Shown here in pieces: positions 1-49,560 of a stretch of DNA of 64,000 nucleotides (position 1 is the first letter of the stretch; every line of letters starts with the position of its first letter). The position numbers and the translations under genes were made by a program. The notes beneath the pieces were generated by a model that saw only the letters and a list, made by a program, of their open reading frames with translations, made no database searches and was not told the DNA's origin. The DNA comes from Streptomyces sp. NBC_00708 (GTDB lineage: Bacteria > Actinomycetota > Actinomycetes > Streptomycetales > Streptomycetaceae): contig CP108997.1 of the NCBI GenBank assembly GCA_036226585.1, positions 1-64,000 of the forward strand. The letters run 5' to 3'.

Positions 1-308
1 CGAAACGAACCGCTTCGCGGTTCGTGACGCAGTGTTGAAAAAGCCGCTTCGCGTCTTTCGGATTTCCGCTTCGCTCCATCCTGGGGCCTCCGCTTCGCTG
101 CGGCCCGAAGTGCGGGGCGGGTCCGCTTCGCTCCCCCGCCCGGTTCCGGCTCCGCCGGAACGGCTGGCTACATGATGACGGTGCATCATTGCTGGTCTGT
201 GTAGCATCCCGAGAAAACAGCCACCCCCGAGCCATGACAGCCCGTCACCCCGGCCGGGTGCCGGCCCGGACCCGTTGGGTGCGGGTTCCGCTTCGCTCCA
301 CCCGCACC
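1..308. repeat. Telomere-like palindrome cluster (inner part of a Streptomyces telomere)
   Basis: Six copies of GCTTCGC (complement GCGAAGC) occur at about 12, 46, 68, 92, 125 and 290. Most lie at the tip of a palindrome. Arms at 5-13 and 17-25 pair perfectly around a 3-base loop. Arms at 84-88/102-106, 115-121/135-141 and 278-285/301-308 enclose the same core, and 143-150/154-161 is a perfect 8-bp hairpin. Streptomyces telomeres are known to carry closely packed palindromes with very stable purine-loop hairpins such as GCGAAGC, which fold in the 3' overhang during end patching. The usual outermost telomere sequence is not seen here, so the extreme end is probably missing from the assembly. 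Confidence 0.8.
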
Positions 309-477
309 GGACAGGCCGTCAGCCGTATTCGGGGATGCCCCTGCCGCCGGGGAGATGCTCTGGAACTCCCCCTTGGTGAACATCGGCCCGCTACGATGAT
401 ACCCGTGCATCACTTGCACATGCGCTGCTTGGTGCATCATTGATGTGCTGTGTAGCATCCCGAATATGTTGCCACCA
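181..477. repeat. Pair of ~45-bp direct repeats and GTGCATCA sites upstream of the helicase
   Basis: A segment starting GTGCATCATTG at 181 recurs at 432. Both copies continue into CTGTGTAGCATCCCGA and then a GCCACC tail, so about 45 bases are shared with a few differences. A third GTGCATCA lies at 405. The second copy ends about 45 bases before the helicase start. The placement suits protein-binding sites for helicase control or for the telomere/replication machinery. That role is inferred. Confidence 0.55.
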
Positions 478-523
478 CCTCTGGCAGCCTGCCTGTTCAT
501 TCATGGATTTCCGGAGATTTGGT

Positions 524-2833
524 ATGCCGAGTACGGGGAAATTCACGCTCCGACCTCACCAGGTCGAAGCCGTTGACGCTGTCGTGCGCGGCCTTGATAT
601 CCCGCCGGGGAAGAAGATCCCGCGGACCGGGCTGCGGGCCACGGTGGTCGCGGCGTGCGGCACGGGCAAGACGTTCATCGCCGCGCACTCCGCGCTTCGT
701 CTGGCCCGGCACGGCCGGGTCCTGGTCCTGGTGCCGACCCTGGACCTGCTCACACAGACAGTGCGGGAGTGGAGGGCAGCCGGCCACCACGGGCCCGCCG
801 TCGCCGTCTGCTCGCTGGAGGACGACCCGCACCTGTGGGACCTGAAGGTGCGCTCCACGACGAGTGCTCCGCAACTGGCGTTGTGGCACGGGCGCGGACC
901 GGTGACCGTCTACGCCACCTACGCCTCCCTCCCCGTCCTCGCAGAAGCCCACGAAGGCGCCTACGGACTGCCCATGGACGTCTTCGACCTCGTGGTCATC
1001 GACGAAGCACACCGAACCAGTGGATCGGCAGGCAAGGCATGGGCCGCGGTTCACGACCAGGACATCATCCCCGCCATGCGCCGGCTCTACATGACCGCCA
1101 CACCCCGAATCTGGAAGGAACGCCCACCCCGGCCCTCCCGGACGCAGCGGCAGGAGGAGGCGGGGGAGCTGCGGGACCGGTTGCCGCAGGACATGGCCTG
1201 CTCCATGGACGACCCCAAGATCTTCGGCCCCGTCGTCTACGAACTCTCACTCGCATCAGCCATCTCCCGGGGCCTGCTGGCGCGATACCAGATCGTCGTC
1301 GTAGAACTCACCGACCCCCTCATCACCCCGGAACGGCTGTCCGGACCACAGAAACGCGACGAGGACGTCCGCGGCGAACGCATGGGCGCGCTCCAGGCCG
1401 CGCTGCTGGAGACCATGGCCGAACACGGGCTGCAGACCACCATCACCTTCCACCACCGCACCATCGAAGCAGCCGCGTTCGCCGGCGGGCTGGGCCGGGT
1501 GGCGAAGCGGCTGCATGCGGCGGACTCGGAGCGGTATCCGGAGCGGGTGTGGGCCAACTGGTTGTGCGGGGACCACGAGCCCGACCATCGGCGCCAGGTC
1601 CTCGCCGACTTCGGCCGGCGTGCGGGGCGTGCGGTGCTGTCGAACTGCCGGGTCCTGGGTGAGGGCGTCGACATCCGGGCCGTCGACTCCGTGGCTCTCC
1701 TCGACCCGAAGGGGTCGGCGGTCGACATCGTGCAGGCGATCGGCCGGGCACTGCGGCAAAAGCCGGGACAGGGGAAAATGGCGACGCTGATCGTGCCTGT
1801 CTTCCTCGCGCCGGGTGAAAAGCCGGAAGACATGCTCACCTCCAACTCGTACAGGCCCCTGGTAAAGGTTTTGGAGGGGCTACGGGCGCACGACGAACGT
1901 GCCATCGAGCTGCTTGCCATTCCCCAGGAACAGCAGAAGGCGATCGTTGACCCGTCGCCCGTCATCGGTCCCCCGCCCGAGGAGGGCCAGGAGGACACGC
2001 GGCCGCTGCTGCGGTTCGCCGCCCCCAGGGATCCGGTCATGATCGCGAAGTGGGTGCGGTTCAACATCATCAGCACCGAGCGCCAGGACTGGCAGCGCGG
2101 CTACGACGCCGCCCGCCGCTACTACACGCGCGAAGGCGACCTGGACGTGCCCTACGACCACACCGAGGGCGCCTACCCGCTCGGAAGATGGCTGTCCGAC
2201 CAACGACGCTCGTTCCGGGCCGGGACCATGAACGGCGAACGCGCCGACGAACTCGAAGAACTCGGAATCGTATGGGACATTGCCGACGCTGGTTTCGAGG
2301 AAAACCTTGCCGCCGCACGCGCCTACTACGCCGAGGCCGGAACCCTCGCCGCACCCCGCCACGCCACCACCCTCGACAAGCCCATCGGACAATGGCTCAC
2401 CAACCTCCGACGACCCGACGGACTCGGGAAGGACACCGGCCGGGCCCGCCGGCGGGCCGAGCAGCTCGCCGCAATCGACCCCGACTGGAACCCCCGACTC
2501 CTCGGATGGACCGTCGACTGGCAACGCAGCTACACCGGCCTAGCGGCGCTCCTGAACGCCGGGAACACGCTCGAGGACGTACAACAGCCGGGGGTGACAT
2601 ACCGCGGCGACGACATCGGCCGCTGGGTCCTCCGGCAGGCGCGCGACTGGGCCCAGCTCAACACAGAACAACAACGACGTCTCGAGAAGCTCGGAGTACG
2701 ACCACGAGCCACTGCACCCGCCCCCACGCGAGGCACCGCGAAAACTGAAGGCGGCTACGGTCCGGTCGTGGGTGGGGATCAGGGGGCCGTCCACGATCAG
2801 CACGGTGTCCTGCGGAACCGTCGCCGGGCCTGA
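524..2833 (+). CDS. Telomere-proximal DEAD/DEAH helicase with helicase-associated repeats (TtrA-like)
   Basis: Superfamily 2 helicase. With the ATG at 524 (GGAG at 513-516) the protein has 769 residues. Walker A GTGKT is at 46-50, DEAH at 160-163, TATPR at 191-195 and the motif VI segment QAIGRALR near 405. The C-terminal third has about three helicase-associated repeats with the W-GY-A---Y pattern (roughly 520-590, 592-655, 665-725). Being the first gene beside telomere palindromes matches ttrA-type terminal helicases of Streptomyces linear replicons, which are implicated in conjugal transfer. The last ~28 codons read antisense through an IS5-type remnant, so the native C-terminus has been replaced. 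An upstream in-frame start at 440 has no ribosome site. Confidence 0.85.
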   Translation: MPSTGKFTLRPHQVEAVDAVVRGLDIPPGKKIPRTGLRATVVAACGTGKTFIAAHSALRLARHGRVLVLVPTLDLLTQTVREWRAAGHHGPAVAVCSLEDDPHLWDLKVRSTTSAPQLALWHGRGPVTVYATYASLPVLAEAHEGAYGLPMDVFDLVVIDEAHRTSGSAGKAWAAVHDQDIIPAMRRLYMTATPRIWKERPPRPSRTQRQEEAGELRDRLPQDMACSMDDPKIFGPVVYELSLASAISRGLLARYQIVVVELTDPLITPERLSGPQKRDEDVRGERMGALQAALLETMAEHGLQTTITFHHRTIEAAAFAGGLGRVAKRLHAADSERYPERVWANWLCGDHEPDHRRQVLADFGRRAGRAVLSNCRVLGEGVDIRAVDSVALLDPKGSAVDIVQAIGRALRQKPGQGKMATLIVPVFLAPGEKPEDMLTSNSYRPLVKVLEGLRAHDERAIELLAIPQEQQKAIVDPSPVIGPPPEEGQEDTRPLLRFAAPRDPVMIAKWVRFNIISTERQDWQRGYDAARRYYTREGDLDVPYDHTEGAYPLGRWLSDQRRSFRAGTMNGERADELEELGIVWDIADAGFEENLAAARAYYAEAGTLAAPRHATTLDKPIGQWLTNLRRPDGLGKDTGRARRRAEQLAAIDPDWNPRLLGWTVDWQRSYTGLAALLNAGNTLEDVQQPGVTYRGDDIGRWVLRQARDWAQLNTEQQRRLEKLGVRPRATAPAPTRGTAKTEGGYGPVVGGDQGAVHDQHGVLRNRRRA

Positions 2834-2910
2834 AAGGAGTCTCTCCCGCACCGGGCGGAAGGGGCGGCACGCCTCCGGGGGCACGTTCCCGCAGTGATGG
2901 TCACGACGAG
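2745..2910 (-). mobile_element. IS5-family transposase fragment overlapping the helicase 3' end
   Basis: On the minus strand the stretch reads DTVLIVDGPLIPTHDRT. This closely matches DAVLIVDGTLVPTRDHT in the larger IS5-type fragment at 5161-5710. Only about 50 codons around the first catalytic Asp remain, and no ends or inverted repeats were found. It supplies the final codons of the helicase frame on the opposite strand. Confidence 0.7.
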
Positions 2911-3145
2911 CAGGTGACACCTCTAGCTAGCCCGACCTTGCCCGACTACTCGGCCGACCGCTCACCGTGGCCACGGACACCGCGGCCACGATGCGCCCCG
3001 AAGCCAGCTGACACGGACGGTTCACCGCAACGCTCCGCTGTCCATCGAAGGTCGCCGTCGCCTGGCGAAACCTGTCGCCGGCCGATCGCGCTCGTCCTCA
3101 CCGTAGATGACGGCAGTGGACCGGCTTTGATCCGTCGGACAACGC

Positions 3146-3787
3146 TCAGGGATACCTCTCTTTCCACGGGTCCGGCGACAGCTTCAGGCCGAACGTGCGG
3201 TGGAGTCGGGCCTGGACGGTCTTGAGGCTCTTGATTCCTTTGTCGAACGTCTGCCACCCCCGCAACGCCTGGCCGGCTTCTTGGGGAGACTGGATCAGTC
3301 CGGCTTCCGGCGCCGAAGCAAGGACCTCGCGCGCGCCCTCATCGAGGTGTTCAATGGCTGCCGACCAAGCTGTCCGGGTCTTGGGATCGGGGAGAGACCC
3401 GAACAGCCGTGCCGCGCTGAGCGCATCCATCAGACCGCCGAAGTCCACTGTCACCAACTCCATGTCGGACCGGGGACGGCCCGCTTGCGCCTTCACCGCT
3501 TCCTTGATCAGGCTGACCACCGCCGTCTCGCCTCCGTACGTGTACCAACTGCCGACGGCCTCGGCAATCTCGGCGCTGGTGGTCGGCGTGGGCGTTGGAG
3601 ACAGAGATGGAGATGGAGATGGGGATGGAGATGGAGACGGGAACGAGGACGGGGCAGCCGTTACGGTCGGTACAAAGCCGCCATTGACCGGGCCGGAGTC
3701 AGCACCCGCACACGCACTGAGCAGCACAGCCGTAACGACCGTGAGCAGCGACAACAGCACGCGAACACACGCAAGCCACTTCACCAC
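3146..3787 (-). CDS. Secreted lipoprotein of unknown function with Ser-Pro linker
   Basis: 213 residues. A short basic start and hydrophobic stretch (residues 8-22) lead to a lipobox, Leu-Ser-Ala-Cys, with the lipidated Cys at 26. A Ser/Pro/Thr-rich linker follows (about 45-70). It looks like a flexible tether and is encoded by the GGAGAT hexamer run. The remaining ~140 residues are alpha-helical in composition and match no family I recognise. The protein should be anchored to the outer face of the membrane. It stands alone between the helicase and the NmrA-like gene, both on their own transcripts. Confidence 0.75.
   Translation of the reverse strand: MVKWLACVRVLLSLLTVVTAVLLSACAGADSGPVNGGFVPTVTAAPSSFPSPSPSPSPSPSLSPTPTPTTSAEIAEAVGSWYTYGGETAVVSLIKEAVKAQAGRPRSDMELVTVDFGGLMDALSAARLFGSLPDPKTRTAWSAAIEHLDEGAREVLASAPEAGLIQSPQEAGQALRGWQTFDKGIKSLKTVQARLHRTFGLKLSPDPWKERYP
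3603..3640. repeat. GGAGAT hexanucleotide tandem repeat inside the lipoprotein gene
   Basis: Six to seven near-perfect GGAGAT units (one GGGGAT variant) encode the Ser-Pro linker on the minus strand. Six-base units keep the frame, so slippage would change linker length without breaking the gene. Confidence 0.8.
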
Positions 3788-4027
3788 GAATGCTCGGCAG
3801 GCCGAAGCAGCAGGCTGCGCCTGGCCGACCGAGTGATCATTAAGGCATCCGGCTGCTTCCCGGCGTCCTGCTGGCGGGGCGCTCTTCCGGCTTGAGCGTA
3901 CGGGCGTGGTTGGTGGTGGGCCAGGAACGATAAGGGGCGTCGCGAGCTGCTGGCGTTGACGCCTATCTGTCGGCTCGCCTCCGGTGCACGCCGGTGCTGG
4001 GGTCTTTGCGGGCAGCGGCTTGGCCGA

Positions 4028-47554: not shown

Positions 47555-48112
47555 CTACAACTCGATCTCGATGTGCTCCACGTCGGCGAATTCGACGCCC
47601 AGGTCGTGCGCGCGGCTGTTGTTGGCGCGGAAGTAGACCTGTGCGAGGCCGTCGGCGGCGATCTGCTGGAGCTGCTGTTCGGTGGCGCCCTGCTCGCGGG
47701 CAGTAAAATAGCCGGTCCGCATATTCGGGAGGCAGGGCCTGGGTGATGTCGCGGATCCGGGCGGCGCCCGTGGTGCCCGGTGCCGCGGTGTACCCGAAAC
47801 GGGCGCGGGTGTAGATCGTCAGGCCGTCGGTCGAGCTGGCCTTCCGCCTCGCCCTCGCCCGTACCTGCGGCTGCCACCGCTTGGCGACCTCGCGTTCTAT
47901 GCGGCCCCGGAGGTCCTGGGGCGGGCGCCGCAGCTTGCCGGCCCCGTACCGCTCTACCGTGCTCTGGGAGACCCCGAGCGCCTGGGCTACGGCCCTGGTG
48001 CCCTTGAGCTGCTTGACCAGGTACCGCATCTGCGCCTGAGCGTCTGCGGCGGCTTGCGGGTGACAACCGCCTCCAGCGCACGGTCCAGGCCTTCCCCGAA
48101 CGAATCGACCAT
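47555..48112 (-). pseudogene. tpg: Terminal protein gene (Tpg) with two compensating frameshifts
   Basis: Tpg is the protein bonded to the 5' ends of Streptomyces linear DNA. From the ATG at 48112 (GGGGAG upstream) the first frame gives MVDSFGEGLDRALEAVVTRK. Near 48060 the sense shifts to QMRYLVKQLKGTRAVAQALG, VSQSTVERYGAGKLRRPP, EREVAKRWQPQVRARARR, TRARFGYTAAPGTTGAARI and ITQALPPEYADRLF. Near 47715 it shifts back to GATEQQLQQIAADGLAQVYF, RANNSRAHDLGVEFADVEH and stop. The assembled protein has the HTH, basic core and C-terminus expected of a ~184-residue Tpg. The first and third parts share one frame. Confidence 0.88.
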
Positions 48113-48159
48113 GACCTGCTACTCCCCTTCTGTCACAGTCCAGTTGAGTCCCTCCGACA

Positions 48160-49020
48160 TCACGCCGCTCCCGTCCTGGCCAGGTCCTCCGGCAGCGGCC
48201 GGGCAGCGAACTTGGTGAGCCGCTCCGTCCACGAGAGCACCGGCCCCCGCTCGTCCTGGAAATCGGCCCGGCGGCGCAGCTGCTCCAGGCGCGTCGCGAA
48301 CAGGTGCTCGGCCACGCGCCGCCGCGCCGTGTCACCGGCCTTGGTCGCAGCCTCGACAGCCTCCTTGACGGCCTGCCGGTCGAGGGGGTGGGGAATGTGC
48401 CGGTTGCGCTCGGTCCGGTAGGCACTGCGGTACTCGGCCTCGGCCTCGTCACTGCGGCCCAGCTGCCGCAGGGCGCTGCTGCGGTACTCCTCCTGGGCCG
48501 TTTCCGCGGCCTGTAGCCCGGCGTATGCGAGCGCGGCCTTTGCCGCGACCGGGTCGGCGGCCAGCTGCTCCGGTCCGGCCACGTCTGCGAACCTGTCGCG
48601 TACGAGGGCGGTGTCGCTCTGCATCGTCGCCCGGACGTGGTCGATCACCGCGGTGACGCCGGCCGGGTCATCCAGCGCGGCCCTCCAGGTCGCAGCGATG
48701 AGCCCGCATTCCGCCACGAGGTCGTTGGTGCGGCGCTGGTAGCGGCAGGCCTCGCACAGCCCGCCTGCCTGGGCCAGCCTGCAGTCCTCACACGGCACGG
48801 CCAGGTGTACCGCTTCGGCGGCCGCCAGAGCCTTCTGCTCGCGCTCGGCCTGCTGGGCCGCTGCCGCACGGGCCCGGCCCGCCGGGCCTGCTGTTCGCGG
48901 GCTTCCTTCAGCCGCTGGGTCAGGCTCTCCGCTTCGGCGGCGGCGTGTTCGCGCAGTCGCTCATCGAGGACACGTCGGCGCTCGTCGTCGGGCAGGCCGG
49001 GGAGCTCGCGGTCGATGTCC
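48160..49020 (-). pseudogene. Broken gene in the tap position upstream of tpg
   Basis: Two frames are needed: ELPGLPDDERRRVLDERLRE, then EHAAAEAESLTQRLKEARE (coiled coil), and after a shift near 48870 PCEDCRLAQAGGLCEACRYQ (two CxxC pairs), then long helices to a stop at 48160, 47 bases before tpg. In Streptomyces the telomere-associated protein gene tap lies directly upstream of tpg in one operon. This gene occupies that position, but I cannot confirm that its sequence is Tap. Its N-terminus is cut by phage-like DNA at about 49022. Confidence 0.5.
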
Positions 49021-49021
49021 G

Positions 49022-49560
49022 CTGGAGTGGTCCGTCGCGACCATCACCAACCACGCGAACCGCCTCGGCCTCACCTTCGACACGGTGCGATGAGCTCCAC
49101 CCAAGACGACGACAGGGCGGAGGGCTGACGATGGCGATCTACAACATCACGACGCTGAACGCGAATGGCTCCATCCGTTCCGTGGACACGTCGGGCGACT
49201 GCCTCGAGGCGCGGGCAGCAACTGGCATGCACCCGCCCGCGTCCAGCGGCAACGTATCCACCTCCAGGATCTGGATCGGGCAGAGCGGCGGGACCCAGCC
49301 CCAGGTCTACGAGAGGTTCACCCGGTACGTCCTGCCATCAGCACGGTCGAGGTCTCCTCCGCGAAGAACTCTTCGGTCCATCCGTAGCCATCACGGGAAC
49401 TCAGTGGGACATGGAGGTCCGCGACTACGGGATCTGGACCACGCTGAGCGCTGCCACCTACGTCGCAGGAGCGTCGATCAGCGGCAAGCCCCTGCTCGCC
49501 ACAGTGGCCGGCATGGCGACGAACGGGAACACGACCAAGAGCTACGTGGGGTCGGACAGC
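49022..49560 (+). pseudogene. Phage structural gene remnants
   Basis: A tail LEWSVATITNHANRLGLTF ends at 49092. A 12-codon frame and then an ATG at 49131 follow: MAIYNITTLNANGSIRSVDT, then RIWIGQSGGTQPQVYERFTR. After frame changes ISTVEVSSAK and TQWDMEVRDYGIWTTLSAAT, then VAGASISGKPLLATVAGM appear. The WDMEVRDYG and VAGASLSG-like segments resemble minor tail/structural proteins of actinophages. No frame is intact. Confidence 0.45.

What the first reader, a model, noticed from the sequence alone, without database searches (positions are those of the whole stretch)
1..308. Window begins inside a Streptomyces-type telomere
Six GCTTCGC cores, most at the tips of palindromes, lie in the first 300 bases. 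Streptomyces 3' overhangs are known to fold into hairpins with such loops. The outermost canonical telomere block is absent, so the terminal bases were probably lost in assembly, or the end is of a less common type.
Basis: partly seen in the sequence, partly recalled or inferred. Interest (0 to 1): 0.85.

Follow-up and report, generated by a model that had tools for sequence, protein, structure and literature searches.

The report
Clipped Streptomyces chromosome end (telomere)
The window starts a few dozen bases inside the end of a linear Streptomyces-type chromosome; the same end caps the other chromosome arm and a linear plasmid of the same cell, and the missing outermost bases were most likely lost in sequencing, so it is a known kind of structure with an interesting plasmid connection.

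Summary
In detail: six GCTTCGC cores at 12, 46, 68, 92, 125 and 290, one strand, all at hairpin tips. The window is the left end of a 7.30 Mb contig; its first 1.38 kb recurs inverted at the right end and at both ends of a 197 kb contig (C2), identical except for one base missing in the window. The other three ends reach 24-27 bases further out, through palindrome II of an archetypal Streptomyces telomere. Counted against 51 public loci with that head, the window lacks about 39 terminal bases. Compensatory changes in relatives support the hairpins. A TtrA-like helicase gene follows, reading inward. An intact tap-tpg pair, which makes the end-replication proteins, was found only on C2; the chromosome holds a broken tpg (47558-48112) beside a remnant of a plasmid gene, and C3 a tpg without recognised Tap. 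So the chromosome probably shares its telomere with C2 and borrows C2's proteins, as reported for S. rochei and S. clavuligerus. Less usual: most loops are GAA, and palindrome I has no partner at the usual palindrome IV place (also absent in 15 of 48 comparable loci). A known kind of structure, clipped by assembly.

The parts
1..317 (-). Inner part of the telomere; the minus strand is the one that ends 3' and would form the hairpins. About 39 terminal bases are missing to the left of base 1
   Evidence: Present at all four ends of C1 and C2; relatives at plasmid ends
5..25 (.). Palindrome III, 9-bp arms, loop TTC (GAA on the 3' strand)
   Evidence: four pairs with compensatory changes, all letters-on-both-sides cells paired (helix 2)
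40..58 (.). Hairpin with core GCTTCGC and one mismatch in the stem
   Evidence: helix 3
60..81 (.). Hairpin arm-TCC-GCTTCGC-TCC-arm; the window lacks one A here that the other three ends have
   Evidence: helices 4, 5
84..106 (.). Hairpin arm-TCC-GCTTCGC-TGC-arm
   Evidence: helices 6, 7
115..141 (.). Hairpin arm-TCC-GCTTCGC-TCC-arm, 7-bp arms; the stretch matched in several more distant telomeres
   Evidence: helices 8, 9
143..161 (.). Palindrome with 8-bp arms and loop TCC (GGA); best, but statistically weak, partner for palindrome I (11 of 13)
   Evidence: (helix 10)
278..308 (.). Innermost GCTTCGC hairpin, 9-bp arms, TCC/TCC internal loop
   Evidence: helices 11, 12 (least well kept, 85.7% of cells in helix 11)
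1..3804 (.). Left arm of the chromosome's terminal inverted repeat; 1-2754 shared with C2 left end, 1-1380 with C2 right end
524..2833 (+). TtrA-like DEAD/ResIII helicase with helicase-associated (HA) repeats, reading inward; start codon 524 is my choice within the open frame
   Evidence: Domains; full copies at both C1 ends, altered or cut copies at C2 ends; homologues at 38 of 51 archetypal loci, 37 of them inward
47558..48112 (-). Broken tpg-like gene in three pieces over two changes of frame; no recognised tap beside it
48163..49037 (-). Remnant (last third) of the 864-aa gene that precedes tpg on C3

Best explanation
Bases 1-308 are the inner part of an archetypal-headed Streptomyces telomere at the left end of a linear chromosome; the assembly has lost the outermost 39 or so bases. 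When replication from the internal origin leaves the minus strand as a 3' overhang, the GCGAAGC-tipped palindromes fold it into hairpins; Tap binds palindromes II and III and positions Tpg, which primes the fill-in and stays on the 5' end. Shown here: the terminal inverted repeat, palindrome II at the other three ends, covarying hairpins, the neighbouring helicase, an intact tap-tpg pair on C2. Inferred: the missing palindrome I, folding in the cell, the protein steps (taken from published work on typical telomeres), and that C2's Tap and Tpg serve the chromosome, which has no recognised tap and only a broken tpg. The identical 1.4-2.8 kb on chromosome and plasmid ends are best explained by recent exchange or copying of ends between replicons; the direction is unknown.
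For: Window 1-400 at all four ends of C1 and C2, inverted at the right ends. Terminal repeat about 3.8 kb on C1, 2755 and 1381 bases shared with C2. The other ends add 24-27 bases with palindrome II. 51 public loci carry the archetypal head, 41 of them with exactly four bases before the pattern; one of them, L074, is 84% identical to this subtype over 337 bases. Twelve pairs with changes on both sides, 0 of 500 shuffles as many. Twenty-three plasmid records with a match, all Streptomyces. Helicase at 38 of 51 archetypal loci. Tap above cut-off only on C2, Tpg intact on C2 and C3.
Against: Palindrome I is not seen at any of this genome's six contig ends. The usual palindrome IV partner is missing. 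No read data; covalently bound protein cannot be tested. The hand-drawn structure came from one of the aligned rows, and several rows are near copies, so the covariation is less independent than eight rows suggest. 'Further pair types' does not exceed shuffles (470 of 500 as high). Dependence on C2 is inferred; the breaks in the chromosomal tpg could in part be sequencing errors, though the neighbouring gene is also cut to a third.
Confidence: 0.92

Rival explanations
1. The left chromosome end is truly shortened in the cell: palindromes I and II were lost there and the end awaits repair by recombination with the right end or with C2.
For: The window starts 24-27 bases inside the other three ends and differs from them by one base.
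Against: Palindromes II and III are the published Tap binding sites (PMC4513846, introduction), so such an end should not be maintained. Other public ends of this kind also stop inside or beyond palindrome II, and NBC_00727's left end shows the same one-base gap and a similar clip, which points to an end-of-contig artefact.
Confidence: 0.05
2. The identity of chromosome and plasmid ends is produced by the assembler or polisher, which copied one telomere onto all four ends.
For: Identity is 100% over 1.4 kb between C1 right and C2 right; C3's left end proves that the assembly has faults at ends.
Against: The shared stretch ends at three different places (1380, 2754, about 3805), each inside long unique sequence, as nested recombination would give; the helicase copies differ after these points.
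Confidence: 0.08
3. A palindrome-rich internal sequence at which an unrelated contig break fell.
For: Palindromes often break assemblies (recalled).
Against: In this genome full copies occur at the four contig ends only; the remaining matches are a short repeat inside those ends and two weak 50-base matches on C3. The three best plasmid relatives lie at record ends.
Confidence: 0.01

Closest known systems
Archetypal (typical) Streptomyces telomere, e.g. S. scabiei 87.22 and plasmid pSV2
   Same: Palindrome II and III places, hairpins with three-base purine loops on the 3' strand, inward TtrA-like helicase, tap-tpg in the genome
   Different: Palindrome I not seen (clipped); loops mostly GAA instead of GCA; no palindrome I partner at the usual palindrome IV place
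Telomeres of plasmids of Streptomyces sp. NBC_00727 and ITFR-6, and of contig L074 of Streptomyces sp. 130
   Same: 84-87% identical along the telomere, same hairpin order
   Different: NBC_00727's ends and the ITFR-6 ends fetched are clipped too; L074 keeps palindrome I from its third base
Chromosomes served by plasmid-borne tap-tpg: S. rochei 7434AN4, S. clavuligerus with pSCL4
   Same: No full chromosomal tap; chromosomal tpg damaged or absent; intact pair on a linear plasmid (passages)
   Different: Here not tested by curing; in addition chromosome and tap-tpg plasmid share identical ends

Membership tests
Archetypal Streptomyces telomere | 13-base palindrome I at the very end | tested here: inconclusive
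   Not in the window nor complete at the other ends; C2 starts at what would be its 13th base; present from base 3 in the close relative L074
Archetypal Streptomyces telomere | Palindromes II and III directly after palindrome I | tested here: met
   Palindrome II on C1 right and both C2 ends, III in the window at 5-25
Archetypal Streptomyces telomere | Palindrome I complementary to part of palindrome IV | tested here: not met
   4 of 13 at the usual place on C1 and C2 ends; best anywhere 11 of 13, reached by 54 of 1000 shuffles; 15 of 48 public loci with the archetypal head also lack it, so it is not shared by all with that head
Archetypal Streptomyces telomere | Three-base purine loops (sheared G:A type) | tested here: met
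   GAA 6-7 and GGA 1 per end on C1 and C2, GCA 0, counted as exact 7-mers
Archetypal Streptomyces telomere | Tap and Tpg encoded in the genome | tested here: met
   Tap 1076 bits on C2 (cut-off 600); Tpg 291 and 280 bits on C2 and C3 (cut-off 90)
Archetypal Streptomyces telomere | Terminal protein bound to the 5' end | not testable with these tools
   Needs DNA from cells
SCP1-type telomere | Starts with a run of G; hairpin loops of four bases | tested here: not met
   Loops are of three bases; the first 12 bases are unseen; tac/tpc were not searched
Sg2247, Sg13350, pRL1, pRL2 telomere classes | Sequence similarity to the class members | not tested
   Reference ends of these classes were not fetched
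TtrA subtelomeric helicase | DEAD-type helicase reading inward next to archetypal ends | tested here: met
   TtrA of SLP2 itself not compared, conjugation role not tested

The most novel reading that the evidence does not exclude
Archetypal-headed telomeres fall into loop dialects (GAA against GCA) that travel with their own Tap clade. In this strain a GAA-dialect plasmid end replaced the chromosome ends, and the chromosome, with no tap and a broken tpg, now depends on that plasmid; priming in this dialect does not use the palindrome I to palindrome IV fold-back of the usual model.
Probability: 0.3. Interest if true: 0.55.

Novelty: new member of a known kind. Interest (0 to 1): 0.33.

Why it matters
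It turns a suspected telomere into a well-supported one and says which bases are missing. One telomere on chromosome and plasmid, tap found only on the plasmid, and a broken chromosomal tpg make a natural test of whether exchange of ends makes a chromosome dependent on a plasmid. The 15 of 48 archetypal-headed loci without the usual palindrome IV partner make the fold-back step of the priming model directly testable.

Tried and rejected
A family accession guessed for the terminal proteins was wrong (a conjugation family, no match; uninformative). The phage collection has no match. Palindrome 143-161 as a displaced palindrome IV: 11 of 13 to palindrome I's complement, but 54 of 1000 shuffles do as well, and its loop is TTC in Streptomyces sp. 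130 and NBC_00344. My first count of loci with the usual palindrome IV (30 of 48) missed loci whose best match lay elsewhere; recounted by place it is 33 of 48. The 864-aa protein before C3's tpg as another Tap: no Pfam or NCBIfam family; 194 plasmid records hold a match and I fetched six. In the five with gene tables the next listed gene downstream is a hypothetical or DUF721 protein, none annotated as tpg; the sixth has no gene table there; the neighbours were not searched for tpg. Left open. The genus search (392 genomes) gave 8 with a match at 1e-8, own included, the best other 71% identical over 220 bases; only two candidates per genome were scored, so it says little about rarity. A wider search of 61 genomes gave 20 with a match at 1e-3, mostly short.

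Full report
What is there. The window is bases 1-64000 of contig C1 (7,301,835 bases) of a three-contig genome. Six GCTTCGC cores lie at 12, 46, 68, 92, 125 and 290, all on the + strand; 2000 shuffles of bases 1-308 give 0.07 on average and never more than 2. On the minus strand, which ends 3' here, each reads GCGAAGC, a hairpin with loop GAA.

It is a replicon end. Bases 1-400 recur inverted at the right end of C1 and at both ends of C2 (197,494 bases). C1's two arms agree over about 3.8 kb (99.9%); C2's left end agrees over 2755 bases and its right end over 1381. Within the first 1380 bases the only difference among the four ends is one A missing in the window near base 77. In the alignment of relatives sp. 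130, NBC_00727's right end and both ITFR-6 ends have that A; NBC_00727's left end lacks it. I take it for an end-of-contig error; that is inference.

What is missing. C2 starts 27 bases and C1's right end 24 bases further out. Those bases contain CCCATCGCTTCGCGATGGG, palindrome II. A scan of public genome contigs with a pattern for the archetypal head found 51 loci, 41 with exactly four bases before the pattern. Counted from that start, C2 begins at base 13, C1's right end at base 16 and the window at base 40. Streptomyces sp. 130 (L074) has the head from base 3 on and is 84% identical to this subtype over 337 bases. Hence 'lost in assembly' is preferred to 'another class'. Of 19 ends that I read by eye, the 17 other than pSV2's lack a complete palindrome I, both pSV2 ends have it; the 51 scanned loci have it because the pattern asks for it, so this is no estimate of how common the loss is. 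The cause may be that the last bases of the 3' strand are not base-called; that is a guess.

Hairpins. On an 8-row alignment a hand-drawn structure of 66 pairs is formed in 95.7% of 489 cells; 12 pairs have changes on both sides (shuffles 5.1 on average, 0 of 500 reach 12); sliding the partners drops pairing to 32-44%. Palindrome III alone has four such pairs. 'Further pair types' does not exceed shuffles. The structure was drawn from one of the rows and some rows are near copies, so the figures lean towards it. C2's 345 terminal bases fold with z -4.1, 0 of 100 shuffles as good, though that fold does not contain all the listed hairpins.

Mechanism. In typical telomeres the 3' overhang folds, Tap binds palindromes II and III, Tpg is the primer, and Tap and Tpg make the first 13 bases (PMC4513846, abstract and introduction). 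In this genome Tap above the cut-off is found only on C2; C1 has one weak match to the N-terminal part (74.5 bits, cut-off 600), and the family also rings weakly in 4 of 14 control genomes. Tpg is intact on C2 and C3 and broken in the window at 47558-48112, in three pieces over two changes of frame. The pieces are 84-88% identical to C3's Tpg, 46-65% to C2's (two pieces matched), and beside them lies the last third of the gene that precedes tpg on C3, so this tpg is probably plasmid-derived debris rather than the chromosome's ancestral gene. C2's Tpg has a Thr at residue 114, the number of the published attachment site (passages of PMC3572947; sequence; not aligned with the published protein). 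The chromosome thus likely depends on C2. Precedents: S. rochei and S. clavuligerus (passages of PMC6662830, and PMC8743545). Exchange of telomeres with plasmids is discussed in PMC7205883 (passages and one section) and PMC8743542 (passages).

What is less usual. In typical telomeres palindrome I is complementary to part of palindrome IV. Of 48 usable loci with the archetypal head (3 of 51 skipped for missing or short sequence), 33 have a partner of at least 11 of 13 bases 55-64 bases beyond palindrome I and 15 do not, the close relative L074 among them; C1 and C2 ends score 4 of 13 there (C3 was not placed). Some of the 15 have 12 of 13 elsewhere, so another partner is possible. Loops, counted as exact seven-base cores in the first 330 bases, are GAA 6-7, GGA 1, GCA 0 on C1 and C2 left. 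Four plasmids whose Tap is 88-94% like C2's have 4-8 GAA and 0-3 GCA cores per end (8 ends); pSV2, whose Tap-like protein is 62% identical, has 0 GAA and 5 GCA. The set is small and hand-picked: a lead only.

Verdict. A real telomere of a known kind, clipped in assembly; the end shared by chromosome and plasmid, and Tap found only on the plasmid, raise its interest somewhat.

Noticed in passing
L013 (left end of contig C3) 1-170: Foreign sequence before the telomere: about 46 of 49 bases of a Mu transposon end (such an oligonucleotide is printed in PMC5517011), then a 24-base barcode printed as number 36 in PMC12717432, then the start of a nanopore adapter (PMC4678842). Looks like an unsplit rapid-kit nanopore read, left in the assembly; the telomere stops about five bases inside palindrome II just before it.
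   Followed up: yes
window 47558-49037: Broken tpg and remnant of an 864-aa gene, matching the order on contig C3: plasmid-derived debris 47 kb from the chromosome end.
   Followed up: partly
L114 4842-7436 (contig C3) minus strand: 864-aa protein without Pfam or NCBIfam family beside an intact tpg; 194 plasmid records hold a match. Possibly a plasmid replication gene.
   Followed up: partly
window 180-212 and 431-463: A 33-base element repeated at 91% identity between telomere and helicase gene; the first copy is kept in the aligned relatives. Function unknown to me.
   Followed up: no
L139 (right end of NZ_CP107920.1): A GC-rich unit with a GCTTCGC core is repeated several times in tandem just inside palindrome III of this related plasmid telomere.
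   Followed up: no
L088 and L035 (ends of NZ_CP108982.1): The left end of this public record is clipped 31 bases further than its right end and lacks the same A as the window.
   Followed up: partly
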